Position numbers and translations under genes: made by a program
Notes under the pieces: model-generated
The model's database searches: none
What the model saw: the letters and a program-made list of their open reading frames with translations, nothing else
Told to the model about the DNA's origin: nothing
Source: Phormidesmis priestleyi Ana
GTDB lineage: Bacteria > Cyanobacteriota > Cyanobacteriia > Phormidesmidales > Phormidesmidaceae
DNA length: 64,000 bases
Direction: 5' to 3'
NCBI GenBank assembly: GCA_001314865.1
Contig: LJZR01000027.1
Coordinates: forward strand, 1-64,000
Part shown: positions 6,121-63,236 of the stretch, one piece after another
Layout: each line of letters begins with the position of its first letter
Position numbering within the stretch: position 1 is the stretch's first letter

Positions 6121-6198
6121 AGGCAGCTAGTTTAGGCAGCTGGTTTAGGCAGTTAGTTCAAGCAGTTAGTTCAAGCAGCTAGTTCAAGCAGCTATTTC
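6121..6198. repeat. 6 x 13-bp tandem repeat (aggcagctagttt-like), overlapping the menG stop codon
   Basis: Six consecutive 13-mers by eye: aggcagctagttt/aggcagctggttt/aggcagttagttc/aagcagttagttc/aagcagctagttc/aagcagctatttc. Confidence 0.95.
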
Positions 6199-6947
6199 GT
6201 TGCCACCAAAACGCCCATCATTCCCCCTGCAATAGGGTAGTGGATGGCGCTGGTAAACCCGGCAGCTTTTGCCAAGCTCATCTGCTCGTGCCCTAGCGGA
6301 AAGCGATCTACGCTGGGACTAATGTAAGCATACTCTTCACTGAGTCCAAATTTTTCCGCCGTAGGGACGACTACGGCGTTTAGGTACCACTGTTGAAACT
6401 GACTCATCAGCGGGTGGGTAGGCTTATGAAAATCGAGAATGGCTACTTTTGCGTCTGGTTTTATCACTCTGTGCAGTTCGCGCAAGCCTTGTGGAATATC
6501 GGTTAGGTTGCGCAGTCCGTAGGCCATTGTGGCTGCATCAAAGCTGTTGTCCTCAAAAGGCAGATTCAGGGCATCGGCTTCTGTCCACCTTAAGCGCGCT
6601 TGCAGATGCGGATGACTCAATTGGGTTTTTTGCGCTGCGATCGCTAGCTGCTCTACCGCAAAATCCGCCCCGACTACCTGCCCGGTTTCCCCTACCTGTC
6701 GAGCCAGTAACAAAGCCAAGTCTCCACTGCCGCAGCACACATCCACACACTTCATGCCTGTTGCCGCACCGCTCCACAGCACTGCCATCTGCTTCCATAC
6801 CTGATGCAGGCCAAAGCTCATATCCCGATTTATCTGGTCGTACTGCGGCGCAATCCGATCAAACAGCTGACGAATTCGATTCGCCTCGGGTTGAGTGGAT
6901 GAAGTCAGTGAACTATCGTTCATGTGCTTATAATCACTTCCCATCAC
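6192..6947 (-). CDS. menG: UbiE/MenG-family methyltransferase (probable demethylphylloquinone methyltransferase)
   Basis: FDRIAPQYDQINRDMSFGLHQVWK, CCGSGDLALLLA, MAYGLRNLTD motifs. Confidence 0.9.
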   Translation of the reverse strand: MMGSDYKHMNDSSLTSSTQPEANRIRQLFDRIAPQYDQINRDMSFGLHQVWKQMAVLWSGAATGMKCVDVCCGSGDLALLLARQVGETGQVVGADFAVEQLAIAAQKTQLSHPHLQARLRWTEADALNLPFEDNSFDAATMAYGLRNLTDIPQGLRELHRVIKPDAKVAILDFHKPTHPLMSQFQQWYLNAVVVPTAEKFGLSEEYAYISPSVDRFPLGHEQMSLAKAAGFTSAIHYPIAGGMMGVLVATK

Positions 6948-7061
6948 TTCTCATTGCTTCTCATCGGCACAGTCGCATCTATACAAAAACCTCAAGCTCA
7001 AAAATTCAAGCTCAAAAAGGCTCAGGTGAGTTCTCAAGCAGCTTTTACATCATGACACAAC

Positions 7062-7160
7062 TGCTAGAACTCAAACCGCTAGAACTCGAACCGCTAGAAC
7101 TCAAACTGCTAGAACTCAAACCGCTAGAACTCGAACCGCTAGAACTCGAACCGCTAGAAA
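7062..7160. repeat. 6.5 x 15-bp tandem repeat (cgctagaactc[a/g]aac)
   Basis: Consecutive 15-mers 7062, 7077, 7092, 7107, 7122, 7137 plus partial at 7152. Confidence 0.95.
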
Positions 7161-7166
7161 CTTAAG

Positions 7167-8580: not shown

Positions 8581-8614
8581 ATTATTGACGGGTTGAGATT
8601 ATTGACGGGTTGAT
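8581..8614. repeat. 2 x 17-bp tandem duplication (attattgacgggttgag)
   Basis: Two adjacent near-identical 17-mers. Confidence 0.85.
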
Positions 8615-8630: not shown

Positions 8631-8724
8631 CTCTAGTGTCATTTCTCTAGTGTCATTTCTCTAGTGTCATTTCTCTAGTGTCATTTCTCTAGTGTCATTT
8701 CTCTAGTGTCATTTCTCTAGTGTC
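8631..8724. repeat. 6.7 x perfect 14-bp tandem repeat ctctagtgtcattt
   Basis: Identical 14-mers from 8631 to 8714 plus a 10-bp partial. Confidence 0.98.
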
Positions 8725-10877: not shown

Positions 10878-11070
10878 GGTCTCACACCTCTTTTTTGTTA
10901 AAAAGCCTATCAGGGCGACGGTAAATACCCTTATGGTAAATATTCTAAATAAATATTACAGGGCTAAGGTCGCTGCCACAGGTGTAGCTAAGGGTTGCCC
11001 AAGTTTAAGTTAGCCTGATTTATAGATGCGATCCCCCCTTAGTAGACTGCTTATACTTTTGTCCACTGCA

Positions 11071-11112
11071 CGTTCCCTATTTCACGTTCCCTATTTCACG
11101 TTCCCTATTTCA
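11071..11112. repeat. 3 x perfect 14-bp tandem repeat cgttccctatttca
   Basis: 11071-11084, 11085-11098, 11099-11112 identical. Confidence 0.97.
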
Positions 11113-11214
11113 CGGTCTCCGCTGTATCAATGAAGACCAGGGGCAAGAGTAAGAAAGGGCAAAAGAATAAGCAAAGCGAAAATGGCGCAGATTCGCTTTG
11201 CCCTTCGTCTTCCT

Positions 11215-12977: not shown

Positions 12978-13233
12978 ACTGCTCTTAATCTCATACTGTT
13001 CTCAAATTTTTTCAAATGTACTTTTCAAAAGTACAAAAGACTCAGCCAGTCACGCTGATATAGCATTTTGGGAGTCTACCCGATATTGACCAAACTAAGT
13101 ACAACCTTTGGGCTATATCTAGCCTATGGCTAGACCGTTTCAGCACCTTCAGCACTTTTTTCAGCACTTTTTATTTATTTCTGAGGGATTGCCAGTAGAT
13201 GATATACCAGTCAAGATAGTATATTAGCAACGA

Positions 13234-15463: not shown

Positions 15464-15703
15464 AGGAATCTAAGGTTTAGGACTGAATTAAGTCTTATTC
15501 TGCCAGAGATTTTGCCAGAGATTTGATGAGCCAGAGATTTGACTTTTGAGTTTGACTTGAGTTCGACTTTTGAGGAGGTGATGCCCAAGCATGAGGTGAA
15601 CCTTGTCACACTCTCTAGGGCGTAGTATCATCAAAGACTGCGAAGAGACCAGAAAAATAAAAGGCAACTCTAGCGACCTGCTGATTTTAAAAACTTTAAG
15701 ACT

Positions 15704-15901
15704 ATGCCAAAGCTCAAAACTCGCCGTGCGGCCGCTAAGCGATTTCGTCGCAGCGGAAGCGGTAAAATCATGCGCCGTAAGGCTTTCAAGAATCACCTCT
15801 TGGAGCACAAAAATCAAGATCGCAAACGTAAGCTCTCTAAAATGACAACCGTTCATGAGACGGATGTTGCAAACGTAGAGCTGATGATGCCTTATCTGTA
15901 A
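15704..15901 (+). CDS. rpmI: 50S ribosomal protein L35
   Basis: [33 protein letters not shown]. Confidence 0.97.
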
Positions 15902-16061
15902 AAATCTTATCTGTAGAAATTATTGGTAGAACATTGTAGAAACGATAGCGTGTAGAAACGATAGCGTTCTTACAAATTTACTAAGTAATCATCGGGTAAG
16001 TCCTTATCTGGCACATCGCTCACCCACTCAACAGGCTCAATTCAACAGGAAAAAATAAACC

Positions 16062-16412
16062 ATGGCACGTGTTAAGCGCGGTAATGTAGCTCGCAAACGC
16101 CGCAAAAAAGTTCTTAAACTGGCTAAAGGCTTTCGAGGTTCTCACTCTAAGCTATTCCGCACCGCTAATCAGCAGGTCATGAAAGCCCTGCGGAATGCCT
16201 ATCGCGATCGCCGCCGTCGTAAGCGCGATTTTCGCCGTTTGTGGATTGCTCGGATCAATGCCGCTGCTCGTTTGAACGGCACCACCTACAGCCGTTTGAT
16301 AGGGGACTTGAAAAAGGCAAATATTGAGATCAACCGCAAGATGCTAGCTCAGCTAGCCGTGCTAGCGCCTGACACCTTTACAAAGGTGGTGGAGAAGGCA
16401 ACTAGCAAGTAG
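16062..16412 (+). CDS. rplT: 50S ribosomal protein L20
   Basis: [62 protein letters not shown]. Confidence 0.98.
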
Positions 16413-16490
16413 CTAGCCACTGGTGGCTAGTCACAAGTAGCTAGTCACAAGTAGCTAGTCACAAGTAGCTAGTCACAAGTAGCTAGTCAG
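16413..16490. repeat. 5 x 14-bp tandem repeat (ctagtcacaagtag) starting at the base after the rplT stop
   Basis: One degenerate unit 16413-16426, then 4 identical units 16427-16482 and a partial. Confidence 0.96.
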
Positions 16491-21841: not shown

Positions 21842-22891
21842 CTAGGTGTTTTTTATTTGAGCTTCTGTTTGAGCTTCTGTTTGAGCTTCTGTTTGAGCTT
21901 TTAGGGTAGCTCCTGAAGGTTTGATGTCACCGGCTTTTAACCGTTCTAAGTCGGCATTCACCATTTTGCTGATGAGTTGCTCAAAGCTAACTTGGGGCTG
22001 CCAGCCTAAGTTTTGGTTGGCTTTGCTAGGGTCAGCTACCAGCTGAAAATGTTCATCTTCTCGAATGAGACTAGGATCGGAGGCGACGTATTTTTGCCAG
22101 TCTAGCCCAACGCAATCAAAGGCAGTTGCAACTAGGTCGCGCACCGTATGCAAAACGCCCGTGCCAATGACATAGTCTTCGGGGGTGTCGGCTTGCAGCA
22201 TTCGCCACATCGCTTCGACATGATCGCCTGCGTATCCCCAGTCTCGTTTGGCATCTAGGTTGCCGATAGAAAGCTGGTCGCTGAGTCCTAGTTTGATGGA
22301 GGCAGCCGCTAATGAAATTTTGCGGGTGACAAACTGCGGTGGCCGGCGGGGCGATTCGTGGTTGTAAAGGATGCCGCTACAGGCAAATAAGTTGTAGCGA
22401 TCGCGATGATGCACCATCGTCCAATGGGCATGTAGTTTGGCCGCGCCGTATGGGTTTTTGGGCCGAAACGTGGTCTCGTCCGTCTGTGGCGCACTCTGCA
22501 CATCGCCAAAAATTTCTGAAGAGCTCGCCTGATAGAACCGTGTGGATAGGCCTAGCTGCCGAGTTGCCTTTAATAGCCGAGTGGCAGTGCCCGTTACCAA
22601 GTCGAGCGTACCTAACGGATCTTCCCAGGAGCGTGGCACAAAGCTGGGTGCGGCCAAATTATAAATTTCAGTCGGCTGTAGCTGCTCTACGGCCTCTGTG
22701 AGCCAATCAGCGTTGGTTAGATCAACAATATAAGTCTCAATCTGCTCAGCGAGCTGGCCTAGCTTAGCGATACTGCTTTTGCGAGCAGGTGGAATGAGCC
22801 CAACAACACGATATCCCTTCCCAAGCAGTAGACGACTCAAGTAGTAGCCATCCTGTCCAGTTACGCCTGTAATCAGTGCCGTTTTTCTCAT
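21842..22891 (-). CDS. gmd: GDP-mannose 4,6-dehydratase family (start likely MRKTALITGVTGQDG at 22891)
   Basis: ALITGVTGQDGYYLSRLLLGKGYRVVGL, YQASSSEIFGD, FRPKNPYGAAKLHAHW. Confidence 0.88.
   Translation of the reverse strand: MRKTALITGVTGQDGYYLSRLLLGKGYRVVGLIPPARKSSIAKLGQLAEQIETYIVDLTNADWLTEAVEQLQPTEIYNLAAPSFVPRSWEDPLGTLDLVTGTATRLLKATRQLGLSTRFYQASSSEIFGDVQSAPQTDETTFRPKNPYGAAKLHAHWTMVHHRDRYNLFACSGILYNHESPRRPPQFVTRKISLAAASIKLGLSDQLSIGNLDAKRDWGYAGDHVEAMWRMLQADTPEDYVIGTGVLHTVRDLVATAFDCVGLDWQKYVASDPSLIREDEHFQLVADPSKANQNLGWQPQVSFEQLISKMVNADLERLKAGDIKPSGATLKAQTEAQTEAQTEAQIKNT
21856..21903. repeat. 4 x 12-bp tandem repeat (tttgagcttctg) at the 3' end of gmd, encoding AQTE repeats
   Basis: Three identical 12-mers plus a partial; protein end LKAQTEAQTEAQTEAQIKNT. 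Confidence 0.95.
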
Positions 22892-28780: not shown

Positions 28781-28831
28781 GCCAAAGGCACCTAAATAAG
28801 TTGAGCAGTAAGTTGGGTTAACAGTCGGGCT

Positions 28832-28950
28832 AAGTCGAATCTAATTAAGTGGAATCTAATAAGTGGAATCTAATAAGTGGAATCTAATAAGTCGAATCTA
28901 AAATAAGTCGAACCTAAAATAAGTCGAACCTAATAAGTCGAGTCTAAAAG
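28832..28950. repeat. 8 x 14-16-bp tandem repeat (aagt[c/g]gaatctaat)
   Basis: Consecutive units at 28832, 28847, 28861, 28875, 28889, 28905, 28921, 28935. Confidence 0.94.
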
Positions 28951-30765: not shown

Positions 30766-30813
30766 AAAGTAAGACCTAAAGTAAGACCTAAAGTAAGACC
30801 TAAAGTAAAGCCC
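30766..30813. repeat. 3-4 x 12-bp tandem repeat aaagtaagacct
   Basis: 30766, 30778, 30790 identical, then a degenerate unit. Confidence 0.93.
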
Positions 30814-31283: not shown

Positions 31284-31287
31284 AATT

Positions 31288-31327
31288 CTCTAAAACTCTC
31301 TAAAACTCTCTAAAGCTCTCTAAAATC
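31288..31327. repeat. 4 x 10-bp tandem repeat ctctaaaact spanning the thrC stop codon
   Basis: 31288, 31298, 31308, 31318; thrC TAG lies at 31320-31322. Confidence 0.92.
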
Positions 31328-32495
31328 CCATTGCTTTTGCCAAACTAGCTGCATCGGACTTTAGCCCCGACTTAAACTGGTTGCCGCTGCGTTTAATTGC
31401 CACTTCAGGATCTTTCAATCCGTTGCCTGTGAGAATGCATACAATTCTCGCTCCGGCAGGCACTTGGTCTTTAACCTGTAGCAGTCCGGCTACCGAGGCA
31501 GCGCTAGCAGGCTCACAGAAAATGCCTTCTTCAGAGGCCAAAATACTGTAGGCACGGGCGATTTCGTCATCGGTCACTGCTTTGAATGTACCACCGCTTT
31601 CGTCGCGAGCCGCGATCGCCTGGTTCCAGCTCGCCGGATTGCCGATGCGAATAGCTGTGGCAAAGGTATCGGGCGACTCAATGGGGTGACCCATCACCAA
31701 TGGCGCTGCGCCTGCCGCCTGAAAGCCCATCATTTGAGGGAGCTGCGTGCTTTTGCCTGCCTGCTTGTATTCCTGAAAGCCCTTCCAATAGGCGGTAATG
31801 TTACCGGCATTACCCACCGGAATGCATAGCCAGTCAGGCGCATCGCCTAGCGCATCTACCAGCTCAAACGCGCCGGTTTTTTGCCCCTCAATACGGTACG
31901 GATTGACTGAATTAACTAGGTTGATAGGGTACTGGTCGGCAACGGCTCGTACAGCGGTCAATGCCTGATCGAAGTTGCCCTTAATCGCCAAAATTTCTGC
32001 TCCGTACAGAAGCGCCTGGGCCAGCTTACCCATGGCCACATAGCCGTCAGGGATCACGACGTAGGCACGTAAGCCACCCCGTCTAGCGTAGGCGGCAGCG
32101 GCAGCTGAGGTATTGCCGGTGCTAGCGCAGATGACGGCCTTGGCGCCCGCTTCTTTGGCTTTGGTGACCGCCATGGTCATCCCCCGGTCTTTAAAGCTGC
32201 CGGTGGGGTTGAGGCCATCGTACTTGATGAAAACCTGAACAGATTTGCCAATGCGACTGGCGATAGAAGGGACTGGAATGAGCGGTGTGTTGCCCTCATG
32301 TAGGGTCACAACTGGAGTGGAATCGCTAACGGGGAGGTACTGACGGTAGGTTTCAATCACGCCTGGCCAACCCATATGCAGGGGGGGCACGGGGGATGAA
32401 TTGATAGCGTTTGAAGGATGGGTTTTATCGAGGCTTAAAGTCACAATATTTTCCAAGTACCAAATTTTCCAAGTGCCAAATTTTCCAAGTGCCAA
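31320..32495 (-). CDS. thrC: Threonine synthase (true start probably downstream of the repeat-encoded N-terminus [16 protein letters not shown])
   Basis: [48 protein letters not shown]. Confidence 0.93.
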
Positions 32496-32496
32496 A
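32449..32496. repeat. 3 x 16-bp tandem repeat ttttccaagtgccaaa at the thrC 5' end
   Basis: 32449-32464, 32465-32480, 32481-32496. Confidence 0.95.
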
Positions 32497-32720
32497 TTTG
32501 TAAAAAAGACAGTGGTATCTCTGTGGATATTTATGCCGACGGGAGTACCTTGGCATAGTCCTTCAAGTTTACCTTGGCGCTATCTGCCCATCGGCACAAC
32601 TCTACAAAATTGACGACTCAGTAAAATTGACCACTTGGTAAATTGCCACAGCTTAGAGGCGAGTAGGAATTATTGCCTGGCTAATATCAAGTTGACACTT
32701 AGGTGACAATTTCCTTAAAG

Positions 32721-33064: not shown

Positions 33065-33105
33065 TAGCCAAAAATCTCTAGCCAAAAATCTCTAGCCAAA
33101 AAACG
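33065..33105. repeat. 2.7 x 14-bp tandem repeat tagccaaaaatctc
   Basis: 33065-33078, 33079-33092, partial at 33093. Confidence 0.92.
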
Positions 33106-33581: not shown

Positions 33582-34118
33582 GTGAGTATGGGTGAGTTAA
33601 AACAGTCGGACAAGTCGTCGGGTCAACCGTTGAATAAGCCGTTGAACAAGCCGTTGAACTTTGATGAGACGTATCGATGTCCGGCTTGTGGGAGCGGTGA
33701 GCTGAGTGCGATCGCCATGATGGATGTATTTGCCTGCGACTTTTGCCGTCACATGTTTACTGCCAACTTGTCAGCGCAGTCTGTGCATCTTGCCGATAGT
33801 ATTCAACCCATGTCGTGGCAATGGAATGGTTGGCAGTGGCGAACCGCTCAGCAAACTGATATGGCCGCCGCCTTAGTGTGGGCCTTCGCGGGCGTTTTGG
33901 CCGTGACGCCAGTGGTTTTGATTGCCGTGTCTAACTATATTTTTCCACCGCTAGAAGGCTCTAACTTTCCGCTGATGTGGACAGGCTTGACGCTTGTTAG
34001 CCACAGCCTGATGTCGGGCTGGCTACTCGCTGAGTACCATCGTTGGCCCTGGTATGTGGGCGGGCGCATTCGATTTCAGCGTTGGCGTGAGCGTTGGCTG
34101 ACGCAGGAGATAGCTTGA
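33582..34118 (+). CDS. Zinc-ribbon membrane protein, hypothetical (N-terminal LNKP repeats)
   Basis: YRCPACGSGELSAIAMMDVFACDFCRHMF; TM segments; start uncertain because of the 12-bp repeat. Confidence 0.7.
   Translation: MSMGELKQSDKSSGQPLNKPLNKPLNFDETYRCPACGSGELSAIAMMDVFACDFCRHMFTANLSAQSVHLADSIQPMSWQWNGWQWRTAQQTDMAAALVWAFAGVLAVTPVVLIAVSNYIFPPLEGSNFPLMWTGLTLVSHSLMSGWLLAEYHRWPWYVGGRIRFQRWRERWLTQEIA
33627..33662. repeat. 3 x 12-bp in-frame tandem repeat ccgttgaa[t/c]aag
   Basis: Encodes PLNKPLNKPLNF. Confidence 0.9.
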
Positions 34119-38881: not shown

Positions 38882-39807
38882 GCCCAGTCGCCGCTAATTC
38901 GAGCGCCAGTTTTGGCACCCATTCAAGTTCGCCGCCTAGCAAGGAAAATGGCTACGAAGCGGTTCCATTGCCGTTGCCTCATTTGCCACCACCCCTGTTG
39001 AGACCTGTACAAAAGATCTCTAAAAAGCCCCGTGCTATAGAGATACTGACGCGTCTTAAAGCCATGTATCCTGAAGCGCCTTGCTCTTTGGATTACGAAT
39101 CGCCGGTGCAGCTAATGGTGGCAACGATGTTGGCTGCGCAATGTACTGACGCTAGGGTGAATCAGGTGACGCCAGCGCTGTTTGCTCGCTTCCCAGATGC
39201 TGTTGCTCTAGCCGGTGCCGATATTTCTGAGTTGGAAGAGCTGGTGCGCTCAACTGGGTTTTACCGTAATAAGGCAAAAAATATTCTGGCTGCCTGCCAT
39301 AAAATTGTGACTGAGTTTGGCGGGCAGGTGCCTCAAACAATGGATGAGCTAACCTCCTTGCCAGGCGTAGCCCGTAAGACTGCAAATGTAGTGCTCGCTC
39401 ATGCGTTTGATATTCATGAGGGGGTCACGGTAGATACCCATGTAAAGCGGATATCAGGGTTGCTAGGGTTAACGACGCATACAGAGCCGGTGAAAATTGA
39501 GCAGGACTTGATGAAGCTGCTACCGCAAGCAGATTGGGAAAACTGGTCAATTCGACTGGTGTATCACGGGCGGGCGGTTTGTCGGGCGAGGTTGCCTATG
39601 TGCGATCGCTGCGACCTACTCGATATTTGCCCCGGTGCCATTAAGCTGCGAAAAGCCGCCGCCAAAGCCGCCAAAGCGAAAGCCGCTAAAGCCGAGGTCA
39701 CTAAAGCCAAGGTCACTAAAGCCAAGGTCACTAAAGCTAAGATCACTAAAGCTAAGGTCACTCAGACTAAAAGCAGCAAAAGGGCGAAGCGCAAGGTGTT
39801 GGATTAG
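38878..39807 (+). CDS. nth: Endonuclease III with Lys/Ala-rich C-terminal repeat tail; GTG start overlaps rseP stop
   Basis: SLDYESPVQLMVATMLAAQCTDARVNQVTPALFARF; CDRCDLLDICPG Fe-S loop. Confidence 0.95.
   Translation: MSPVAANSSASFGTHSSSPPSKENGYEAVPLPLPHLPPPLLRPVQKISKKPRAIEILTRLKAMYPEAPCSLDYESPVQLMVATMLAAQCTDARVNQVTPALFARFPDAVALAGADISELEELVRSTGFYRNKAKNILAACHKIVTEFGGQVPQTMDELTSLPGVARKTANVVLAHAFDIHEGVTVDTHVKRISGLLGLTTHTEPVKIEQDLMKLLPQADWENWSIRLVYHGRAVCRARLPMCDRCDLLDICPGAIKLRKAAAKAAKAKAAKAEVTKAKVTKAKVTKAKITKAKVTQTKSSKRAKRKVLD
39688..39762. repeat. 5 x 15-bp in-frame repeat aaagccaaggtcact (KAKVT)
   Basis: Consecutive 15-mers at 39688, 39703, 39718, 39733, 39748. Confidence 0.96.
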
Positions 39808-41565: not shown

Positions 41566-41616
41566 GCGTCTTTAACATGCCTTAAAGACGCAGCTTAAAG
41601 GCGCAGCTTAAAGACG
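41566..41616. repeat. 13-bp repeats (ttaaagacgcagc) whose first copy forms the 3' arm of a perfect hairpin
   Basis: GCGTCTTTAA-catgcc-TTAAAGACGC (41566-41591), then 13-mers at 41582, 41595, 41608. Confidence 0.85.
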
Positions 41617-43655: not shown

Positions 43656-43687
43656 TGTAAACGGCAGATATTGTAAACGGCAGATAT
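43656..43687. repeat. 2 x perfect 16-bp tandem duplication tgtaaacggcagatat
   Basis: 43656-43671 and 43672-43687 identical. Confidence 0.95.
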
Positions 43688-43708
43688 TAATCGATTTGGC
43701 TCAGGCTC

Positions 43709-43785
43709 AAAAAGTAAAGCTCAAAAAAAGTAAAGCTCAAAAAAAGTAAAGCTCAAAAAAAGTAAAGCTCAAAAAAGTAAAGTTC
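43709..43785. repeat. 5 x 14-16-bp tandem repeat aaaaaaagtaaagctc
   Basis: Units at 43709, 43723, 43739, 43755, 43771. Confidence 0.95.
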
Positions 43786-45116: not shown

Positions 45117-46937
45117 CTACTGTGGAAAAATCTTTTCCTCGGGCTGCCCAGGCTCACCCATGACTTCAGCTTCTCCCCCATTGGCGGCAAGCTGGAGAGC
45201 ACCTGCATCCCCTGAGTACACGCTGAGATTTTCTGTCGCCTCCCATACCTGGCTTTCACCGGGCTGAAGGGTGCCTTCAAAAATCGGGGTGGGGTTGCCG
45301 TCAGCAATAATGCTTACCCAGGCTTCTGAAGTTGCCGTTGCTTTTACATAGATGGGCGCTGTACTAATGGGCGGCTCGGCAGCAACGGGTTCAGGGTCAG
45401 GGATGGGTGGCAACCCTCCGCTAGTATTTCCTTCAGTGGTCTGTTCTGTTGGTGCTGAGCTGTCAGCAACGCTGGGTTGACGGTTGTTACCGCCTAACAC
45501 GCTGGCGATGACGAGGGCTACGGTTGCGATCGCGGCCACTACGCCACCAATAATAAACGGTTTTAAATTCGGCTGCGCAGGCCGGTCATATTCAACCCCC
45601 ACAGGCTTAATAGACTGCATTGGCTCAGGCTGGCTTGGCGAAGAGAATTCGTTTTGCGGGGCAGTCAAGGCAGCGGCAGGTAAATTGTCATCCGAGTAAT
45701 TGTCATCCGAGTAATTGTCATCCGAGTAATTGTCATCCGAGTAATTGTCATCCAAGCTTGGCTTGTCCAACGGACGATCTAAAATAGCCTGACCATTGAG
45801 ATCGGCCTCTTCAAACCCCGTGAGATCGGTATCTTCAAACCCGGTTTCTAAACGGCTATTTACGCTAGCAGCTACTGGTAAACCAATCCCTAATTCAGGA
45901 ATGGTTGTTTCATGATCAGTTTTCTGCGTAAAGCGGGCGGCGGCTTCATTTTGCGACGGGCTCAACTCAGAGGGCGTTACTGGGGCCTCATCTGTCTGAG
46001 GTTGCTTCAGGTTTTCCCGGTCAAAGGCCGCTATCTTGCTAGCAAAGTCCGTTTCTGCATCGGCAGATTCAGTATCCAAATCGCGATTCAAATCGTGATT
46101 CAGGGGTGCATCTAACGAGGTTGTTTCTTCGACTGGTGGAAAGCCGCCCGTTATGGAGTCAGTTGCTGCAACGTTATCAACGGCGTAACTAAAATCGTCA
46201 TCAGCAGTTGCAGGGATTTGTTCTAGGGGGGGTTCTATCTGGGGTTCTATTTGGGGCTCTATCTGGGATTCTATTTGGGGCTCTATTTCAGAGAACTCTA
46301 TTTCTTCGTATCCGGTATTGACGCTGTTTACAGTGCTGTTTACAGTGCTTTCTTGGGCGCTCTCTTCTAAGGCGCTCTCTTCTAAGGTGCTCTCCAACAG
46401 GGCATCTGCGCTAAGTGCTGGATCGAAGCTAGCTGCGGCTGTGGCAAAAGGGCTGGTATCGGGCCGACCAAGCGTTAGATCGTCTACGGTATTAGGGGAT
46501 GAGCCATTGGCGACTACACCTGCGCTAAACATCGGCGTCGCTGTTTGCGATGCTTTGGCAGCGGCTGTATTCGGCTTAGGATGGCCATTCACCGCAAATC
46601 GAGTCGTTGTGGTGTCACCAGGTGGCGCTGGTCGCACCGGACGAGGCGTCGAGGGAATAGAGTCAACCGTAAACTGCTGGGATAGCTCTATACCATTGAG
46701 TCCTAACGTTTCACCGTACCGCCGAATAAACCCCTGAACAAAAATGGGCTCCGGCAGCATGGTTGGATCGCCCGTTTCAATGCCGCTTAGTAGCTGTGGG
46801 CGAATGTAGGTTCGAATGGCGATGTCTGCTAAAGACTTATTTTGCTTTTCTCGGTTGTCACGCAAGAAAGCGCCAATTTGTGCGAGTTGATTTTGCTGCG
46901 CGGCACTAAATTTAGTCACAATACTCCATGAAACCAA
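45117..46937 (-). CDS. RodZ-like protein (N-terminal Xre HTH, TM, C-terminal DUF4115-like)
   Basis: IGAFLRDNREKQNKSLADIAIRTYIRPQLLSGIETGD; long Asp/Glu-rich linker; C-terminal WVSIIADGNPTPIFEGTLQPGESQVWEA. Confidence 0.85.
   Translation of the reverse strand: MVSWSIVTKFSAAQQNQLAQIGAFLRDNREKQNKSLADIAIRTYIRPQLLSGIETGDPTMLPEPIFVQGFIRRYGETLGLNGIELSQQFTVDSIPSTPRPVRPAPPGDTTTTRFAVNGHPKPNTAAAKASQTATPMFSAGVVANGSSPNTVDDLTLGRPDTSPFATAAASFDPALSADALLESTLEESALEESAQESTVNSTVNSVNTGYEEIEFSEIEPQIESQIEPQIEPQIEPPLEQIPATADDDFSYAVDNVAATDSITGGFPPVEETTSLDAPLNHDLNRDLDTESADAETDFASKIAAFDRENLKQPQTDEAPVTPSELSPSQNEAAARFTQKTDHETTIPELGIGLPVAASVNSRLETGFEDTDLTGFEEADLNGQAILDRPLDKPSLDDNYSDDNYSDDNYSDDNYSDDNLPAAALTAPQNEFSSPSQPEPMQSIKPVGVEYDRPAQPNLKPFIIGGVVAAIATVALVIASVLGGNNRQPSVADSSAPTEQTTEGNTSGGLPPIPDPEPVAAEPPISTAPIYVKATATSEAWVSIIADGNPTPIFEGTLQPGESQVWEATENLSVYSGDAGALQLAANGGEAEVMGEPGQPEEKIFPQ
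45685..45759. repeat. 5 x 15-bp in-frame repeat ttgtcatccgagtaa (NYSDD)
   Basis: Four identical units plus one diverged. Confidence 0.97.
46231..46290. repeat. 5 x 12-bp in-frame repeat (IEPQ)
   Basis: ggttctatctgg-like units at 46231, 46243, 46255, 46267, 46279. Confidence 0.93.
46324..46395. repeat. 12-bp (ctgtttacagtg x2) and 15-bp (gcgctctcttctaag x2+) in-frame repeats
   Basis: Encodes STVNSTVN and ALEESALEES. Confidence 0.88.
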
Positions 46938-47179
46938 CGACTACTATCGGAACGCTGAAGAAGATAGTGAGCCCTAACATAAACTTCTATGTATGTTCAC
47001 TCAAACTATCCTATCAATGATTTGGCCCTATCAATGATTTGGCTAAATCATGCGCTCATAATTTGACTACTGTAACTTGACCCACTGTAATTGGGGTTTG
47101 ATTGGGGTTTGTCAGTGACCTCTTAAGGCCAGATGGTAATAGGGCCAAATTATGACTATCAGCATTGAGATCTCTAGAT

Positions 47180-51806: not shown

Positions 51807-54447
51807 ACCGTTTGGTGGCTGCTGATTGCCTGTCGGGGACGACATGCCGGTTGACGATTGCTTTGTTGCTTTCTTGTTGGGTGGCCATATCGACTGCGAT
51901 CGCAGCAATTTGCACATCTAAGCAGTGCATTGGTACCTGCATTTCAGTGGTGACTTCTAGGTCACCTAGCGCATCAGGAACTAAGTTGGTCAGCAGCAGG
52001 GGATCTATCACCACGCTACGGCTTTGCCGATCGACCATCCACAGCTTAATAAAAGGCTTATACATCGATGGCCGAGTTCTCACGGTTACGGCAATGGTTT
52101 CACCGGCTACCAAATCTCCCATTGGTACGCTAATTACCGGTAGTGCCATTTCAGGCAACTCTTCTGACGAGGCTGGCAGGTGATTGGGCTGACGGGTGAG
52201 CGGTGCGATCGCCTGTCGCGAGTTAGTTGGGGTAGTGTAGTTAGCTGAGGCAGTGTAGTTGGCTGAAGCAGCGTGCCGCTGTTGGCTTAGTCCTTGGGAA
52301 CTCCGCTGAGACAACTGACGATTCCGTCTGTTTTGTCCCGTAGATCTGCTTTGTCCCGTAGATCTGCTTTGTACTGGAGGCATGCTTTGTGCTGGAGGCA
52401 TGCTTTGTGCTGGGGGCATGCTCTGGGTTGTAGGTATGCTCTGCGCTGAGGGTGTTGTAGGTCGTGCGGCAGATATTTTGTCGTCGTAAATGACCACTTC
52501 GCCCTGAGAAAACTCAGCGGCCGCAGCAAGATCAGGCGACTGGCCTCGGCTGACACCAGCTTGTTTCATCCCTTCTGCAATCAATGCTGCTTCCTTGTGG
52601 CTTTCGTGTGTCAGCGTTGATAGCCGGTTCCAAAAGTGATCCTTTAGCTTTAACGACCGAAAGTCAACACTAGACTCTAGCTGCCGGGTTGATGGCCGCT
52701 GATCCATCTCTGATCGGTTAGCTGCTGGCCGAGCGGCTGGCGGAGAGCTAGCCGAGGCGGTTTCCAGATCGGGAGCGCTTTCTAGGTTGGGCGGTTGATA
52801 ATTCTCTGCTACTGGGGCTGAAAGGATATCTTTTGGCTGAGTCGCTTGCCCATTGGCCTTAAACGTTTGATGTTCTGGCAAAGCGCCTTCAATGCCAGGC
52901 GCTTCCAACGTATCCCAATCGGGCCTATCCGATCGCAAATCCTGGTCAATATCCTCTAGCACAGCGCTGATTTCATCGGCTTCTAAGTCGCCATCCTCAA
53001 TGCTGGTGCCTAAGAACTGAGCGGGGGCTGTTACCATGGGCGCACGCTCAATTGGCAGGCGGGGTTCTCTGGGCTCAGGCGATGATGCAACGAATGTGGA
53101 GCCTACCGATTCTGGATGTGCGGCGGCTGGGGCTGCGGCTACTGGCAAGGTGGGGGCTGCGCGATCGCTAGAACCATCACTCACGATAAGATTAGCAGCG
53201 GTATCGGCGCTGTAAGGACTCCCAAAGTTAGGCAGCTCTAGCTGGTCTGTAAGATTGTCTCGATCGGTAGATTCTTGCGAAAATCCGTTAACGTCTACTG
53301 GTTTGGGCCGATCTAGCTGAGGTGGGAGCACAACCCCAACGGCTGGTACAAAGGTGGTTTGAATTGGATTGAGAAACGGCACTGCCAGCTCCGGTTCACT
53401 GTTGGCGTAACCGTTTGAACGGCCTGATGCGGTCTCGCCTGACAACACAGAAATCTCTTCGTCAAAACTGCCCGGATCTTGATTGGCGATCGCATCTAGC
53501 AGTTGGTCAATGCCCGCTGTAATCGTAAATGCCGTAGAGGCCAAAATTTCCACTTTGTCGTTAGGATCTATCGCGGCGGTTCGCAACGAAACTTCTCCTA
53601 AAATGACTCGGGTGGTCACTTCCGCTGGCAGCTGTATCTGCACTTTGAAGTCAGCCGGTAGCCTGCTCAAGCTCAGGGGCCGATGCGCTTCCATAATCAC
53701 CTGCGCGGTTTCTGGATTTTGCAGGCGAATCCAGAGCTGACTGGTTTCTTCCTGCACGGTTTCGGTCAGAGAAGTGACCTTGCCCATAATGCTCATAGGC
53801 TGACTATGGTGTGCCAGGTATGCCTGCTGCCTGAGCACAACGCGATAGTCCAAGGCCTGGGCGGCGGCTGAATCGCCAAGGTCGGTGTTGGTGAGTCCCT
53901 GGTTCTGTCGTTGGGTTTCGAGTTCGGCCTGGGCCTGAATTAAAGGCAAATCGGGATTGACATGAACAGCGGATGAGTCTGTCTGAGGTGGGCGATCGCC
54001 CTCAACCATCTCACTGACAACCGAGTCTGAATCGTCAGGTACTGGCCATTCTGCTGACCAGTCTTCATCAGTATGGGCAAACACCTGAAGCTGCACGCTG
54101 TAGCACCAGTCAGCGTCTTGTGGCAGATCTGCCGAACTGTTTGCCGAACTATCTGCTGATTGAATACTGCTGCAATTGAGCGCCCACTGCCCCGGCTTAA
54201 GATGCACAAACGGCATCACCACGACTAAGCCTGCCTCATTGGTTTGGCCGATCCGCTTACGAATGCGCTTGCGCGGCGGTAGCTCATCGGTAATGAGCTG
54301 ACTCACCTGAATCTCCATTGGTGTATTGGCGCGGTCAGTATGCGCAACCACTCGATAGCGGCCTTCTAAAATTTCTACCTGTTCCGTTTCTAGCGGCAGC
54401 CAGGTTTGATCGCCTTCTTTTTGGATCAGAAATTCCCAATATTTCAT
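51796..54447 (-). CDS. Large multidomain hypothetical protein with long disordered, repeat-containing region
   Basis: 883-aa ORF; ordered N- and C-terminal regions, Pro/Ser/Gln-rich middle; 3' overlap of 11 bp with the VanZ gene. Confidence 0.85.
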   Translation of the reverse strand: MKYWEFLIQKEGDQTWLPLETEQVEILEGRYRVVAHTDRANTPMEIQVSQLITDELPPRKRIRKRIGQTNEAGLVVVMPFVHLKPGQWALNCSSIQSADSSANSSADLPQDADWCYSVQLQVFAHTDEDWSAEWPVPDDSDSVVSEMVEGDRPPQTDSSAVHVNPDLPLIQAQAELETQRQNQGLTNTDLGDSAAAQALDYRVVLRQQAYLAHHSQPMSIMGKVTSLTETVQEETSQLWIRLQNPETAQVIMEAHRPLSLSRLPADFKVQIQLPAEVTTRVILGEVSLRTAAIDPNDKVEILASTAFTITAGIDQLLDAIANQDPGSFDEEISVLSGETASGRSNGYANSEPELAVPFLNPIQTTFVPAVGVVLPPQLDRPKPVDVNGFSQESTDRDNLTDQLELPNFGSPYSADTAANLIVSDGSSDRAAPTLPVAAAPAAAHPESVGSTFVASSPEPREPRLPIERAPMVTAPAQFLGTSIEDGDLEADEISAVLEDIDQDLRSDRPDWDTLEAPGIEGALPEHQTFKANGQATQPKDILSAPVAENYQPPNLESAPDLETASASSPPAARPAANRSEMDQRPSTRQLESSVDFRSLKLKDHFWNRLSTLTHESHKEAALIAEGMKQAGVSRGQSPDLAAAAEFSQGEVVIYDDKISAARPTTPSAQSIPTTQSMPPAQSMPPAQSMPPVQSRSTGQSRSTGQNRRNRQLSQRSSQGLSQQRHAASANYTASANYTTPTNSRQAIAPLTRQPNHLPASSEELPEMALPVISVPMGDLVAGETIAVTVRTRPSMYKPFIKLWMVDRQSRSVVIDPLLLTNLVPDALGDLEVTTEMQVPMHCLDVQIAAIAVDMATQQESNKAIVNRHVVPDRQSAATKRFNF
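52331..52452. repeat. 18-bp in-frame repeats (MPPAQS / RSTGQS)
   Basis: gcatgctttgtgctggag-like and tttgtcccgtagatctgc-like units in succession. Confidence 0.92.
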
Positions 54448-56423: not shown

Positions 56424-57380
56424 TCAAGGCGTCTTGTATCTCAATATTTCGATGGCATCCCCTACTTGTAGCCGCATCAGCGTTTGATTTGCCGTTTGAG
56501 CCGCTGTTTGAGCCGCTGTTTGAGCCGCTGTTTGGCCTGCCGGTTGATCGGCCGGTTGATCGGCCCGTTGATCGGCCTCTATCTGAATGCAGTTTTGCCC
56601 AAACCAAATGCCTCGATTTTGGTAACGATAGGTTGCGAGCGTTTTTGTCGGTTCTTGGCCTTGAATGCCGGTGTGTGGATTTACTCCAGGGATGGAGCAG
56701 CGATCGCACAGTTTCGGCAATTCAAACACCCCTGCGCCGATTCGTATTTGCTGCCAGGTATCTTCCTCATGTGCCTCACGACAGCCCTTGACGACCAAAT
56801 TGGGCCGAAACCGCGCCATCGTCACCGCTGCCTCGCCTTTCTCTAATAGTCGCTGATTGAGGCCCGCCAAAGAAGCTTCTGAAATCAATAAATAGGGATA
56901 GGCATCGGCAAAGCTGACGAGCTGATCGTCGCCAAATCTGCCGTGATCGGTCGGCCTGTGCGAATGGTTGGGCATATACACCAGCTGACAATCAATGCCC
57001 ATAAACCGCGTGAACCACTGTTTGCTTTCGGTGCCAAGGGCGATCGCCTCACACCGATCGCCCCACACTTCTACCGTTACTTGCCTATGCGATTCACTCT
57101 CTGGTGATATCTCTGGTGATATCTTTGGTGATATCTCTAGTGGCACCGATAGCTCAGGCATGTCAGGTGCATTAATCGTCAACTGATCGCCAATCGCAAC
57201 TGAAATGAGCGCCATTTTAGGAAACTGACGCTGAGTCATAAACTTTCCACTGGCATTCACCACCATCCATCGGCGGTCGTATTGCAAACCGCGAGCCGTC
57301 ATCTGCCCTTCGCGGAGGGCAATGCCAGCTGCTGATTTAATCGGGTACACATGCAGTTCACTTAGCGTTAGTGCAGCCAT
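56424..57380 (-). CDS. MOSC domain-containing protein (MOSC_N + MOSC)
   Basis: LHVYPIKSAAGIALREGQMTARGLQYDRRWMVV; RFRPNLVVKGC; CDRCSIPGVNPHTG. Confidence 0.93.
   Translation of the reverse strand: MAALTLSELHVYPIKSAAGIALREGQMTARGLQYDRRWMVVNASGKFMTQRQFPKMALISVAIGDQLTINAPDMPELSVPLEISPKISPEISPESESHRQVTVEVWGDRCEAIALGTESKQWFTRFMGIDCQLVYMPNHSHRPTDHGRFGDDQLVSFADAYPYLLISEASLAGLNQRLLEKGEAAVTMARFRPNLVVKGCREAHEEDTWQQIRIGAGVFELPKLCDRCSIPGVNPHTGIQGQEPTKTLATYRYQNRGIWFGQNCIQIEADQRADQPADQPAGQTAAQTAAQTAAQTANQTLMRLQVGDAIEILRYKTP
56485..56580. repeat. 8 x 12-bp in-frame repeat in two subfamilies (tgagccgctgtt / tgatcggccggt)
   Basis: Encodes QRADQPADQPAGQTAAQTAAQTAAQTANQ inserted near the MOSC C-terminus. Confidence 0.95.
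57098..57145. repeat. 4 x 12-bp in-frame repeat tctctggtgata (ISPE/ISPK)
   Basis: Units at 57098, 57110, 57122, 57134. Confidence 0.93.
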
Positions 57381-60173: not shown

Positions 60174-60188
60174 AGTATGACAACAAGG

Positions 60189-60246
60189 CAGTGGGCTAAA
60201 GACAGTGGGCTAAAGACGATTGAACAAATGACGATTGAACAAATGA
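60189..60246. repeat. Two adjacent tandem duplications: 2 x 14 bp (cagtgggctaaaga) then 2 x 15 bp (cgattgaacaaatga)
   Basis: 60189/60203 and 60217/60232 copies identical. Confidence 0.95.
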
Positions 60247-60265
60247 TGTGCAATCACGCTGGGCA

Positions 60266-63016
60266 TTACGGCGCAACCCGAGTTTTGAATCTGAATAGAC
60301 CATAGGCATCATTGGGTGTGCCAGGGCCGGTAGATGCGGGAATGGCCGTTAGGGTAGGCTCTCCTGTGCCGGTTGCGCCCGTCACATCAATCATGAGAGT
60401 GCCGTTATCGTTCGCGCCTTGCAGGTTACAAGTCGCTGGCACAGGGGCACTAGGGGCGATGAATTCGGTGCGATCAATCGCATCACTCACCGCTGTTAGC
60501 CCCAACACCGGGCTAGTGCCTAGCTGCAGTTCCACATCTACGCCTGCGCCATAGGCATTGGTGACAAAAGTTTGGTTGGGAAGAAGGCGATCGCACAGTC
60601 GTACATCTGTCGCTGCCACATTCCCTGAGCTTAAAAAGTACACTGTATACTCTATCTCATCACCTGGCCGCACCGAGCCTGCATTAAACGCCCCTAATAG
60701 ATAATTAGCAGGCCAGTTCGGATGATTATCAATCGCGGCATAGGGCGAAGTGGTATCGTCAACAAACTGGCTGAGATTGGTGCCATCGTTGGGATTAATC
60801 GTTTGCCCATTCACTGCCGTAATCCGCTTCACCAACGACATATTAGGCACGCTTGGCACAATGACAACATCTTCAGCTGTACTTGAGCTGGCAATATAGT
60901 TAGTGCCAGCCACGTCCTGACTGCCCTGTGAGCCACTCTCGTAAGTGGTCTCTGCTACACCTGTGTTGGCACCAGCCGCTGGTGAAATTTGTCGATTGGG
61001 TGTGCTCCGACTGGGATCTAAATAGCTCACAAAAGCTGGATTTTGATAAGTCCCCGGAGGTGTCCCGGCGGCGATATCTACGGAAAAGGTTACCGCTACC
61101 GACCCGCCTTCGGGGATGGTATAGTCCCCAAACTCAAGATTATTCGCAGTGCCCAGGTTGCTGGGTGACGTTGGCCCTGTTGCGCCGCCGCTAAGTACTG
61201 CTGTGGCTCCAGCACTATAGGTAAACCCAGCTGGCAATGTATCAGAAAGCCGGGTCCCGGTTGCGCCACCCGGCCCTGAATTGGTCGCCGTAATGGTGTA
61301 GGTTGCCGTTGAGGGTGTAATGCGACCACCCGCATCGCCTGAATTGTCTTCGGTTTTGGTCACTGTGAATGTTGGAAAGCAGTCTGCACCCTGTAAGGCC
61401 GGAGGCACCAAGGCGGGATTGATAGAGCCTGTTATGCCGTTACTACCATTCGTTGCGCTATGCGGAGTGCCCGCGCCTGAATTTGCCCGTCCGCTCACAC
61501 CGCCCGCTAAGTTGGGTGCCAGAACTTGCCCTCCTGGACTTGCTGAAACCACCACCCCGCCACCGCCGCCACCACCAGGGCCATGTTCGTTATTAAAATC
61601 GCTTACCGTATCGCCGCCATTCCCGCCAATAGCCTCTACCGAGAGCCCTGATAAATCGCCGGACTTGGCAATGAGCGCCACCGTACCGCCTGCACCGCCG
61701 CCACCTGCACCATCTGGCGCACTAAAAAATTCTCCCTGTTCACCATCACTCCCATTCGAGACAATTCTGCCTGTGCCGACAAATCGGTCAGCCCGAATCA
61801 TAACCACACCGCCGCCTTGTCCGCCTCGAATGCCGTTAGCGTCGTTGTTGACATCGCCGCCACCGCCGCCGCCGCCCAAAATTAAGCGATCGCCCACCGG
61901 ACTAGGCACAGGGACGGTGCCACCCAAACCTCTAGAGCCCGGACGGTCTCCCCCGGCATCTTCCCAGCCGATGCCACCAAAGCCCCCATCGCCGCCGTTG
62001 CCGCCGCCGCCGCCGCCAGCGTTATGAGCATTACCGCCGCCGCCCGCGTTAGCGGGTGCTCCTCGGCCTGCATCTCCCCCTGGCAATTGTTCTGATCCAA
62101 GGTCTACGGCTGTTGTTCCATCCCACAGGTAGCGAGGTGTTCCGGCAATGCCCTCGCCTTTACCGCCGACTTCTGTTGAAGTGGTGGGTGAAACATAGAT
62201 ATTGTTGTTTGGCCCAGAGGACGAGTCATTAGGAATAAAGCCGCCTCTAAATCCACGTTCTGTGGCATCAATAGTAAACCCGTTGAAGTTCATATCGCCT
62301 GCGATATCGAGGGCTAGTACGCCACCGACTTGACCATTCCAATCTGGCACAGTGACATTGCTGGTCAGCGATAAGCTGGCATACTGCACTACCCGAATAA
62401 CCTGAAAAGTTCGCCGTCCTCGCGTCGGCGTAGCATTCGTGTTGTTGTAAGTATTCACGACGCCATCGTTCGTATTACCGCCAACAAAGGTGAGTGATCC
62501 ACCACTGATCGGTACAGAGTTTGTTGCTCTGACAAATTCATATATACCTGAGTTGCCTAAGCTCGTTTGGCCTCTACCGTCATTGGCCGGATTGCCAGAA
62601 CCGTAGGCGGCTGTATTACTGCTGTCGATGGTGGCATCCTGCATTTGAATAATCATCAGCATGTCACCTTCAGAGATGGGTACATTACTTCCTGCGGTGT
62701 AGGAGCTATCTAATACAACAGAAGTGGCACCACTGGCCAGAGATGCCCCACTCTGAGGCGGAAAGTAAGTATTCACCATTTCAGAGAAGTTCACTGGCCC
62801 ATCTTTGCCCGGTGTTGCACATACGTTAGAGCCAGCAAAGGCAGGCTGCATAGGCAACAGCAACAGCATTTGCCCTGTGAGCAATCCAAGCGATAACGAA
62901 CCTGCAAACCAGCGTCGCGGTTTAATGAGGTGGGCGACTCGTTTTTGATAGCGGTTGTTGCCTGTGGTGCTTTTGTGAGTAGAAGACTGTTGTTGAGACA
63001 ACATAATTAATAACAA
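60266..63016 (-). CDS. Secreted Gly-rich surface protein with DUF11-like domain and the same C-terminal module
   Basis: Signal/TM region; GGGGGGGDVNNDANGIRGGQGGGVVMIRADRFVG; SLVKRITAVNG...DEIEYTVYFLSSGNVAATDVRLCDR. Confidence 0.85.
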   Translation of the reverse strand: MLLIMLSQQQSSTHKSTTGNNRYQKRVAHLIKPRRWFAGSLSLGLLTGQMLLLLPMQPAFAGSNVCATPGKDGPVNFSEMVNTYFPPQSGASLASGATSVVLDSSYTAGSNVPISEGDMLMIIQMQDATIDSSNTAAYGSGNPANDGRGQTSLGNSGIYEFVRATNSVPISGGSLTFVGGNTNDGVVNTYNNTNATPTRGRRTFQVIRVVQYASLSLTSNVTVPDWNGQVGGVLALDIAGDMNFNGFTIDATERGFRGGFIPNDSSSGPNNNIYVSPTTSTEVGGKGEGIAGTPRYLWDGTTAVDLGSEQLPGGDAGRGAPANAGGGGNAHNAGGGGGGNGGDGGFGGIGWEDAGGDRPGSRGLGGTVPVPSPVGDRLILGGGGGGGDVNNDANGIRGGQGGGVVMIRADRFVGTGRIVSNGSDGEQGEFFSAPDGAGGGGAGGTVALIAKSGDLSGLSVEAIGGNGGDTVSDFNNEHGPGGGGGGGVVVSASPGGQVLAPNLAGGVSGRANSGAGTPHSATNGSNGITGSINPALVPPALQGADCFPTFTVTKTEDNSGDAGGRITPSTATYTITATNSGPGGATGTRLSDTLPAGFTYSAGATAVLSGGATGPTSPSNLGTANNLEFGDYTIPEGGSVAVTFSVDIAAGTPPGTYQNPAFVSYLDPSRSTPNRQISPAAGANTGVAETTYESGSQGSQDVAGTNYIASSSTAEDVVIVPSVPNMSLVKRITAVNGQTINPNDGTNLSQFVDDTTSPYAAIDNHPNWPANYLLGAFNAGSVRPGDEIEYTVYFLSSGNVAATDVRLCDRLLPNQTFVTNAYGAGVDVELQLGTSPVLGLTAVSDAIDRTEFIAPSAPVPATCNLQGANDNGTLMIDVTGATGTGEPTLTAIPASTGPGTPNDAYGLFRFKTRVAP

Positions 63017-63191
63017 GAAGTAGGGAGCATAATTTGAGAGCGAAACATTACCAGAATTTTAGAAGTACATGTTGGGCATTACTTGGGCATTACAGGTGTA
63101 TTCCAGTTCTCGAACCAACAACAAACGACTTGAATTAACTGAAATATCAGTTTTTTTTGTTATGATACCTGCCTAACGTACCCATGCGGGC

Positions 63192-63236
63192 CAGCTAAGA
63201 AACAAGTCAGCTAAGAAACAGGTCAGCTAAGAAACG
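63192..63236. repeat. 2.8 x 16-bp tandem repeat cagctaagaaacaagt
   Basis: 63192-63207, 63208-63223, partial at 63224. Confidence 0.94.

What the first reader, a model, noticed from the sequence alone, without database searches (positions are those of the whole stretch)
6121..63236. Window-wide family of short tandem arrays sharing period but not sequence
More than 25 loci carry 2-8 near-identical tandem copies of a short unit (10-17 bp, most often 13-16). Each locus has its own unrelated sequence, so this is not a dispersed repeat family, a CRISPR, or one classical heptameric STRR. Copies within an array are often identical (for example 6.7 perfect 14-mers at 8631), which implies recent and repeated local duplication. 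This suggests an active process, such as slippage, templated fill-in or a repair polymerase, that duplicates ~14-bp segments throughout this genome.
Basis: partly seen in the sequence, partly recalled or inferred. Interest (0 to 1): 0.75.

Follow-up and report, generated by a model that had tools for sequence, protein, structure and literature searches.

The report
Genome-wide short tandem duplications in cyanobacterium
This cyanobacterium's genome is riddled with an estimated 4,000 small stutters, 10-16 letter stretches copied head to tail, each with its own sequence, made by an ongoing copying error that needs no pre-existing repeat and may start where a DNA-untwisting enzyme (topoisomerase I) cuts; if so, it is a natural counterpart of a mutator known only from the laboratory.

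Summary
TRF finds 43 array loci in the window against 0-1 in each of five shuffles. In 1.37 Mb sampled from the same genome the density is about 6.7 arrays per 10 kb (extrapolated ~4,000 genome-wide). All 397 intergenic units compared are distinct. Coding arrays are multiples of 3 bp in 265/272 cases; intergenic arrays are not (155/430) and peak at 12-15 bp. Orthologous gaps in a sister species mostly lack the arrays. This is therefore a genome-wide duplication process, filtered by selection.

Density is ~7x that of other cyanobacteria and ~60x E. coli, but a lower-level version with similar periods occurs across cyanobacteria. One sister is equally dense.

Two-copy arrays show little or no junction microhomology, which argues against slippage as the founding event. 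The flank carries a weak motif, 5'-CNNT|unit-unit on one strand, replicated in held-out data (ANNG 40 vs 20.6 expected, p=1e-4). It matches the type IA topoisomerase preference (C at -4). E. coli topA R168C is a published mutator making repeat-independent tandem duplications of 2-19 bp. I propose extension and rejoining of a TopA cleavage complex as founding event (about 40%), then slippage expansion. Why the rate is raised here is unknown: TopA1 keeps R168, and SbcD, MutS1, PolA and RecJ are present.

The parts
2828..2853 (.). intergenic array, 13 bp x 2.0, flanked outward by AT
6123..6198 (.). intergenic array, 13 bp x 5.8
6984..7018 (.). intergenic array, 14 bp x 2.4
7059..7159 (.). intergenic array, 15 bp x 6.7
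8581..8613 (-). 17 bp x 1.9 array in the non-conserved N-terminal extension of a glyoxalase-like ORF
8631..8724 (.). intergenic array, 14 bp x 6.7, all copies identical; no array in the orthologous gap of G003
11069..11114 (.). intergenic array, 14 bp x 3.3; absent from the G003 gap
13148..13172 (.). intergenic array, 12 bp x 2.1; absent from the G003 gap
15538..15574 (.). intergenic array, 13 bp x 3; absent from the G003 gap
15891..15967 (.). two adjacent unrelated intergenic arrays, 15 bp x 2.0 and 16 bp x 2.1; absent from the G003 gap
16406..16489 (.). intergenic array, 14 bp x 6.0, starting at the end of an ORF; absent from the G003 gap
21856..21900 (-). in-frame coding array, 12 bp x 3.8, in a C-terminal tail of a GDP-mannose dehydratase-like protein beyond the region aligned to G003
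28831..28949 (.). intergenic array, 14 bp x 8 with a 46-bp higher-order period; G003 has an unrelated 16-bp array in the same gap
30766..30808 (.). intergenic array, 12 bp x 3.6; absent from the G003 gap
31287..31325 (.). intergenic array, 10 bp x 3.9; absent from the G003 gap
32448..32499 (-). 16 bp x 3.2 array at the predicted 5' end of threonine synthase (start codon uncertain)
33065..33102 (.). intergenic array, 14 bp x 2.7
33627..33659 (+). in-frame coding array, 12 bp x 2.8, in a variable N-terminus (PLNKPLNKPLN)
34145..34209 (.). intergenic array, 13 bp x 5.0; absent from the G003 gap
35041..35087 (.). intergenic array, 13 bp x 3.5; absent from the G003 gap
35222..35288 (+). in-frame array, 15 bp x 4.5, at the N-terminus of a peroxiredoxin-like ORF
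35803..35832 (+). 15 bp x 2.0 array whose unit is shared with G003: an old, retained duplication
39686..39762 (+). in-frame coding array, 15 bp x 5.1, in the C-terminal tail of endonuclease III beyond the conserved domain
41581..41616 (.). intergenic array, 13 bp x 2.8; absent from the same gap of three sisters
43656..43688 (.). intergenic array, 16 bp x 2.1
43709..43782 (.). intergenic array, 16 bp x 4.7
45683..45753 (-). in-frame coding array, 15 bp x 4.7, in the linker of a RodZ-like protein
46229..46394 (-). three in-frame coding arrays (12 bp x 5, 12 bp x 2.2, 15 bp x 2.6) in the same linker
47010..47043 (.). intergenic clean two-copy 17-bp array, junction m=0, flanked outward by ATAG (5'-CTAT|unit on the + strand); G003 and G002 have different arrays in this gap, G001 and ULC129 none
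52221..52271 (-). in-frame coding array, 18 bp x 2.8, in a low-conservation linker
52365..52448 (-). in-frame coding array, 18 bp x 4.7, in a low-conservation linker
56494..56577 (-). two in-frame 12-bp coding arrays (3.4 and 3.2 copies) in the C-terminal region beyond the G003 alignment
57098..57142 (-). in-frame coding array, 12 bp x 3.8; lies exactly at a 12-residue insertion relative to the G003 protein (ISPKISPEISPES)
60185..60246 (.). adjacent intergenic arrays, 14 bp x 2.4 and 15 bp x 2.1
63192..63235 (.). intergenic array, 16 bp x 2.8

Best explanation
SHOWN: the arrays are products of a genome-wide process that duplicates ~8-17 bp stretches head to tail, mostly without junction microhomology, largely after the split from sister species, with purifying selection removing frame-shifting copies from genes. 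INFERRED: the founding event is an error of topoisomerase I (type IA, TopA). TopA cuts single-stranded, AT-rich DNA after 5'-CNNN, stays joined to the 5' end and leaves a free 3'-OH. If a polymerase extends that 3'-OH by ~10-16 nt before rejoining, the new stretch is sealed in front of the old one: 5'-CNNT|unit|unit. The resulting repeats then expand to 3-9 copies by ordinary slippage or unequal exchange. Arrays persist mainly near gene 3' ends and in flexible protein tails and linkers, where they do least harm.
For: Process and selection (about 0.9 on its own): density 7.27/10 kb vs 0.07 shuffled; coding arrays 265/272 multiples of 3, intergenic 155/430, and again 62/66 vs 42/112 in fresh sequence; of 16 window gaps with arrays alignable to G003, 12 have no array there, 2 an unrelated one, 2 a similar one; a coding array coincides with a 12-residue insertion; density convergent 35.6 > tandem 23.3 > divergent 16.7 per 10 kb, skewed to the upstream gene's 3' end. 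Junctions: among 87 clean two-copy intergenic arrays m=0 in 44%, against 53% for simulated blunt duplications and 0% if >=1 nt microhomology is needed; G001 similar, 12 of 20 m=0. Topoisomerase step: outward flank A at +0 and G at +3 (on the other strand 5'-CNNT|array); in pooled data +3 is the only position with significant G excess, 0.281 vs 0.222. Held-out sequence and sister genomes: ANNG 40 vs 20.6 expected, p=1e-4; ATAG 9 vs 1.7, p=7e-5. ANNG sits on one side, rarely both: 2 of 456, ~5.9 expected if independent, p=0.10, as a single nick predicts. Published: bacterial topoisomerase I prefers C at -4 and leaves a 5'-phosphotyrosine and a 3'-OH (PMC7587558, PMC2702276, PMC6101483); E. coli topA R168C gives repeat-independent tandem duplications of 2-19 bp (PMC6954433). 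TopA1 of this genome keeps the -4 cytosine contacts and the catalytic tyrosine motif.
Against: The motif is weak: excess G at only ~6% of boundaries, whereas mapped in-vitro cleavage sites had C at -4 throughout. It was found by scanning, then tested on held-out data; the single-position G3 test in held-out data is only p=0.012, and the G000 and G004 held-out sets are individually weak. In pooled distant cyanobacteria only A at +0 was significant, not G at +3. TopA1 has no R168-type lesion, so nothing seen explains the raised rate. Arrays are rarest in divergent gaps, where transcription-driven negative supercoiling should be highest, though selection confounds this. The laboratory study found no match between its hotspots and known cleavage motifs. 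About 13% of clean two-copy arrays have m of 7-9, possibly remnants of larger arrays. No polymerase extension of a type IA cleavage complex has been shown.
Confidence: 0.4

Rival explanations
1. Replication slippage or misalignment founds the arrays as well as expanding them, perhaps with a weakened flap, exonuclease or mismatch-repair step.
For: Slippage is the standard route for expanding existing repeats, and arrays with 3 or more copies, imperfect copies and higher-order periods exist. AT-rich boundaries would melt easily.
Against: Clean two-copy junctions lack microhomology. Full-length SbcD, MutS1, PolA and RecJ matches are present. Nothing in slippage predicts an outward CNNT motif. Inverted repeats are not enriched at the sites.
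Confidence: 0.28
2. Staggered nicks on opposite strands 10-16 nt apart leave 5' overhangs that are filled in and joined, duplicating the overhang.
For: Predicts blunt, microhomology-free duplications of a limited size range. [quoted passage not shown]
Against: No Ku homologue found in this genome or 17 relatives. The ANNG motif does not occur on both sides more than chance.
Confidence: 0.15
3. The arrays are selected functional elements: binding-site clusters, terminators or regulators.
For: Arrays concentrate near gene 3' ends and in convergent gaps, and 43240-43310 looks like a conserved DnaA-box cluster.
Against: Units share no sequence, arrays turn over between sister species, they are scarcest in divergent (promoter) gaps, and coding arrays follow the reading frame.
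Confidence: 0.05
4. Footprints of mobile elements: target-site duplications left by insertion and excision, or a dispersed minisatellite element.
For: Blunt tandem duplication is what a precisely excised element leaves (general knowledge); clean two-copy arrays are blunt.
Against: Target duplications of one element family have a narrow size, whereas periods here run from 9 to 18; units are all different; ATAG-flanked arrays share no longer flank.
Confidence: 0.03
5. Assembly artefact of a draft genome.
For: The genome is a draft in 136 contigs.
Against: Coding arrays obey the reading frame; arrays are mostly under ~110 bp; the same kind occurs in independent assemblies including G001, which has a 4.7-Mb contig.
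Confidence: 0.01

Closest known systems
E. coli topA R168C tandem-duplication mutator (Bachar et al. 2019, PMC6954433)
   Same: Head-to-tail duplications of short stretches (2-19 bp there), independent of existing repeats, genome-wide.
   Different: Laboratory mutant of a conserved arginine. Here TopA1 keeps that arginine, the record is accumulated in a natural genome, arrays have expanded to many copies, and a C(-4)-type flank motif is seen, which the laboratory study did not find.
Cyanobacterial STRR (short tandemly repeated repetitive) heptamers
   Same: Short tandem arrays between cyanobacterial genes.
   Different: STRRs are 7-bp units of a few recurrent sequences (own knowledge). Here 7-bp units are almost absent (1 of 748 arrays) and every unit compared is unique.
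Bacterial VNTR / MLVA loci
   Same: Minisatellite-like arrays of variable copy number.
   Different: E. coli K-12 gave 1 array of period 9-30 per 100 kb. Here it is about 67 per 100 kb with a preferred period, and copy-number variation was not measured.
Lower-level 12-18 bp arrays in other cyanobacteria
   Same: Same period range, including 14-16 bp, in 76 tatC loci and in other cyanobacterial genomes.
   Different: About 1 per 10 kb there, against 1.1-6.9 in this genus; the C(-4) flank signal was not significant in the distant set.

Membership tests
topA-type tandem-duplication mutator | duplications independent of existing repeats | tested here: met
   m=0 in 38/87 clean two-copy arrays; blunt simulation 53%, microhomology model 0%
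topA-type tandem-duplication mutator | duplication length 2-19 bp | tested here: inconclusive
   excess seen for about 8-17 bp; 7 bp shows no excess over chance and shorter units cannot be told from chance
topA-type tandem-duplication mutator | substitution at TopA R168 | tested here: not met
   TopA1 has ...ETRRILDRLVGY..., matching mycobacterial TopA at these contact positions; R168 numbering by motif, from own knowledge and PMC6101483
topA-type tandem-duplication mutator | raised duplication rate per generation | not testable with these tools
   needs mutation-accumulation lines or close strains
type IA topoisomerase cleavage product | C at -4 from the cut (CNNN|) | tested here: inconclusive
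   significant but weak: +3 outward G 0.281 vs 0.222 pooled; ANNG 40 vs 20.6 in held-out sets, G3 alone p=0.012
cyanobacterial STRR | 7-bp unit | tested here: not met
   1 of 748 arrays has period 7
cyanobacterial STRR | recurrent unit sequence shared between loci | tested here: not met
   397 distinct of 397 units
CRISPR array | repeats separated by unique spacers, one repeat sequence | tested here: not met
   units abut directly and differ between loci
slippage-founded minisatellite | founding duplication between short direct repeats | tested here: not met
mismatch-repair or exonuclease-deficient mutator | loss of MutS, RecJ, SbcCD or PolA | tested here: not met
   MutS1, RecJ, SbcD and PolA present at full length; MutL, SbcC, ExoVII, UvrD not tested
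Ku-dependent end joining of filled-in staggered breaks | Ku present | tested here: not met
   no Ku match in 18 genomes

The most novel reading that the evidence does not exclude
A natural lineage in which topoisomerase I cleavage complexes are routinely extended and resealed, writing microhomology-free tandem duplications into the whole genome. That would give a sequence signature (5'-CNNT|unit|unit) for how bacterial tandem repeats arise from non-repeated DNA.
Probability: 0.35. Interest if true: 0.82.

Novelty: new variant of a known kind. Interest (0 to 1): 0.62.

Why it matters
How a first tandem repeat arises from unique DNA was described as unknown in 2019 (PMC6954433). A genome with about 4,000 independent examples gives that question a data set: birth size, lack of microhomology, a candidate cut motif and selection by reading frame can all be read directly. 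It also means proteins in this genus gain short repeated tails and linkers at an unusual rate. If the topoisomerase link holds, the duplication rate could be set by an enzyme rather than by repair loss.

Tried and rejected
Inverted repeats or hairpins at the sites: best stem 5.2 vs 5.3 bp in controls. Loss of SbcD, MutS1, PolA or RecJ: all present. Ku-based end joining: absent. A shared element beyond the ATAG flank: none seen. Paired nicks: motif not co-occurring on both sides. One consensus family: none. TopA2 as the cause: a second type IA match occurs in many relatives, including low-density G006, and is missing in G003, so it does not track density. Identity as Phormidesmis priestleyi BC1401: that genome is 5.55 Mb in 213 scaffolds (PMC4971617), so not the same assembly. 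Literature for such arrays in cyanobacteria: the searches gave only heptamer STRR or unrelated work.
Full report
What was checked. The window is contig C30 of a 5.93-Mb draft genome (G000). Phormidesmis LEGE 11477 (G002) and Phormidesmis priestleyi ULC027bin1. TRF at score 50 finds 43 loci in the window; five dinucleotide shuffles give 0, 1, 0, 0 and 0. I sampled 1.05 Mb of the genome for analysis and 0.32 Mb more for validation. Density is 6.93 and 5.87 arrays of period 9-30 per 10 kb, about 4,000 if the rest is alike (extrapolation).

Comparison. Sister genomes: G004 6.55, G002 3.6, G005 3.3, G003 2.4, G001 1.7, G006 1.1 per 10 kb. Other cyanobacteria: 0.96 in 76 tatC loci and 1.30 in 400 kb of other genomes, with periods again mostly 12-18 bp apart from 7-mers. 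E. coli K-12: one array in 100 kb. So the kind is general in cyanobacteria, while the amount is exceptional in part of this genus. Control samples are small (20-60 kb per genome), so single values are rough.

Selection. With a simple codon-based gene caller, 265 of 272 coding arrays have a period divisible by three (mainly 12 and 15), against 155 of 430 intergenic ones. Intergenic density is 19.6 per 10 kb and coding 3.3. In an unbiased scan of repeat lag, intergenic DNA shows a hump at 10-16 bp with a peak at 14 and almost nothing at 9 or below. Aligned to BC1307 proteins, the window's coding arrays mostly sit in tails, signal regions or linkers outside the conserved blocks; one (57098-57142) coincides with a 12-residue insertion. 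Intergenic arrays are densest in convergent gaps and towards the 3' end of the upstream gene. This is what mutation plus purifying selection would leave.

Turnover. Forty-seven window proteins have matches in the BC1307 sequence held. Of the 16 alignable gaps with window arrays, 12 have none in BC1307, 2 have an unrelated array and 2 have a similar unit (35803 and 43240).

Founding event. For clean, perfect two-copy arrays, the excess of the match over the unit length (m) measures junction homology. In 87 intergenic cases m was 0 in 44%, 1 in 16% and 2 in 13%. Simulated blunt duplications gave 53, 27 and 12%; a 1-nt requirement gave no m=0. These two-copy arrays are shorter (8-17 bp, mode 11) than arrays of three or more copies (13-15 bp), partly because TRF's score cut-off drops short two-copy arrays and possibly because longer repeats expand more readily.

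Flank motif. Scanning the boundaries showed A at +0 and G at +3 outward, with ATAG the most over-represented four bases. I fixed ANNG as the test and applied it to sequence fetched afterwards and to sister genomes. G001 had already been looked at when the motif was formed, so it is not fully blind. With boundaries near genes removed, the pooled non-discovery sets gave ANNG 40 vs 20.6 (p=1e-4), ATAG 9 vs 1.7 (p=7e-5) and G3 alone 91 vs 70.7 (p=0.012). Individually: G000 validation 17 vs 9.4, G004 10 vs 5.9, G001 7 vs 2.7, other sisters 6 vs 2.6. Leaving G001 out, ANNG is 33 vs 17.9. In coding arrays it was 43 vs 23.0 and, in validation, 12 vs 6.5; ANNG shifted outward by 8 bp was not enriched in the held-out sets. 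The motif is one-sided. On the complementary strand it reads 5'-CNNT|unit|unit, with the array on the 3' side of the cut.

Mechanism. Bacterial topoisomerase I prefers C four bases before the cut. It binds the 5' end covalently and leaves a 3'-OH. Extension of that 3'-OH followed by resealing would give exactly a blunt tandem duplication 3' of CNNT. E. coli topA R168C gives repeat-independent tandem duplications of 2-19 bp, and its authors leave open whether the enzyme itself is the cause. Here TopA1 keeps the R168 motif and the -4 cytosine contacts, so the cause of the raised rate is not identified. The genome has a second type IA enzyme (TopA2) with changes at two of those contacts by eye (D and K in place of R), but its presence does not track density. 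The extension step is inference.

Verdict. A genome-wide, microhomology-poor duplication process with strong selection by reading frame is well supported. TopA as the initiator is the best available mechanism at about 0.4; slippage-founded duplication remains the main rival. Known kind: tandem-duplication mutator. New variant: natural, lineage-wide, with a candidate cut motif.

Noticed in passing
window 43240-43310: Cluster of TTTTCCACAGG-like repeats (DnaA-box-like) in the 1.1-kb gap next to tatC; similar clusters lie in the same gap of BC1307 (L004 ~11602-11650) and LEGE 11477 (L006 ~11941-11973). A candidate replication-origin or DnaA-binding region, and one of only two window arrays with a similar unit in BC1307.
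   Followed up: partly
window ~43802-44026: Short unlisted ORF (~75 codons, ...SVEIPEELHLSVQHYLDVHSGWGQDRLF...) in a 240-bp stretch ~80% identical to BC1307; resembles a small conserved cyanobacterial protein (DUF2811 from memory, not tested).
   Followed up: no
L119/L120 (G000 C45:117608-120583 and 132348-134732): Two type IA topoisomerase genes 12 kb apart; both carry tandem arrays in their own C-terminal regions. The second has D and K where TopA1 has the two arginines contacting the -4 cytosine (by eye).
   Followed up: partly
G004 (L235-L237, L254-L257): A sister genome with nearly the same array density (6.55 per 10 kb) and period spectrum; its topA matches are fragmented, one with an internal TGA in the draft.
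   Followed up: partly
boundary profile, inside position -4: C is relatively high at -4 inside the array end (0.237 against about 0.18 at neighbouring positions); not predicted by the simple model and not followed.
   Followed up: no
L007-L083 pooled: Other cyanobacterial tatC loci hold many 7-bp arrays (44) of the classical STRR period, almost absent from this genus.
   Followed up: no
window 57495-63016: Two long minus-strand proteins with DUF11 repeats, one also matching AgmC-type gliding protein, next to each other.
   Followed up: no
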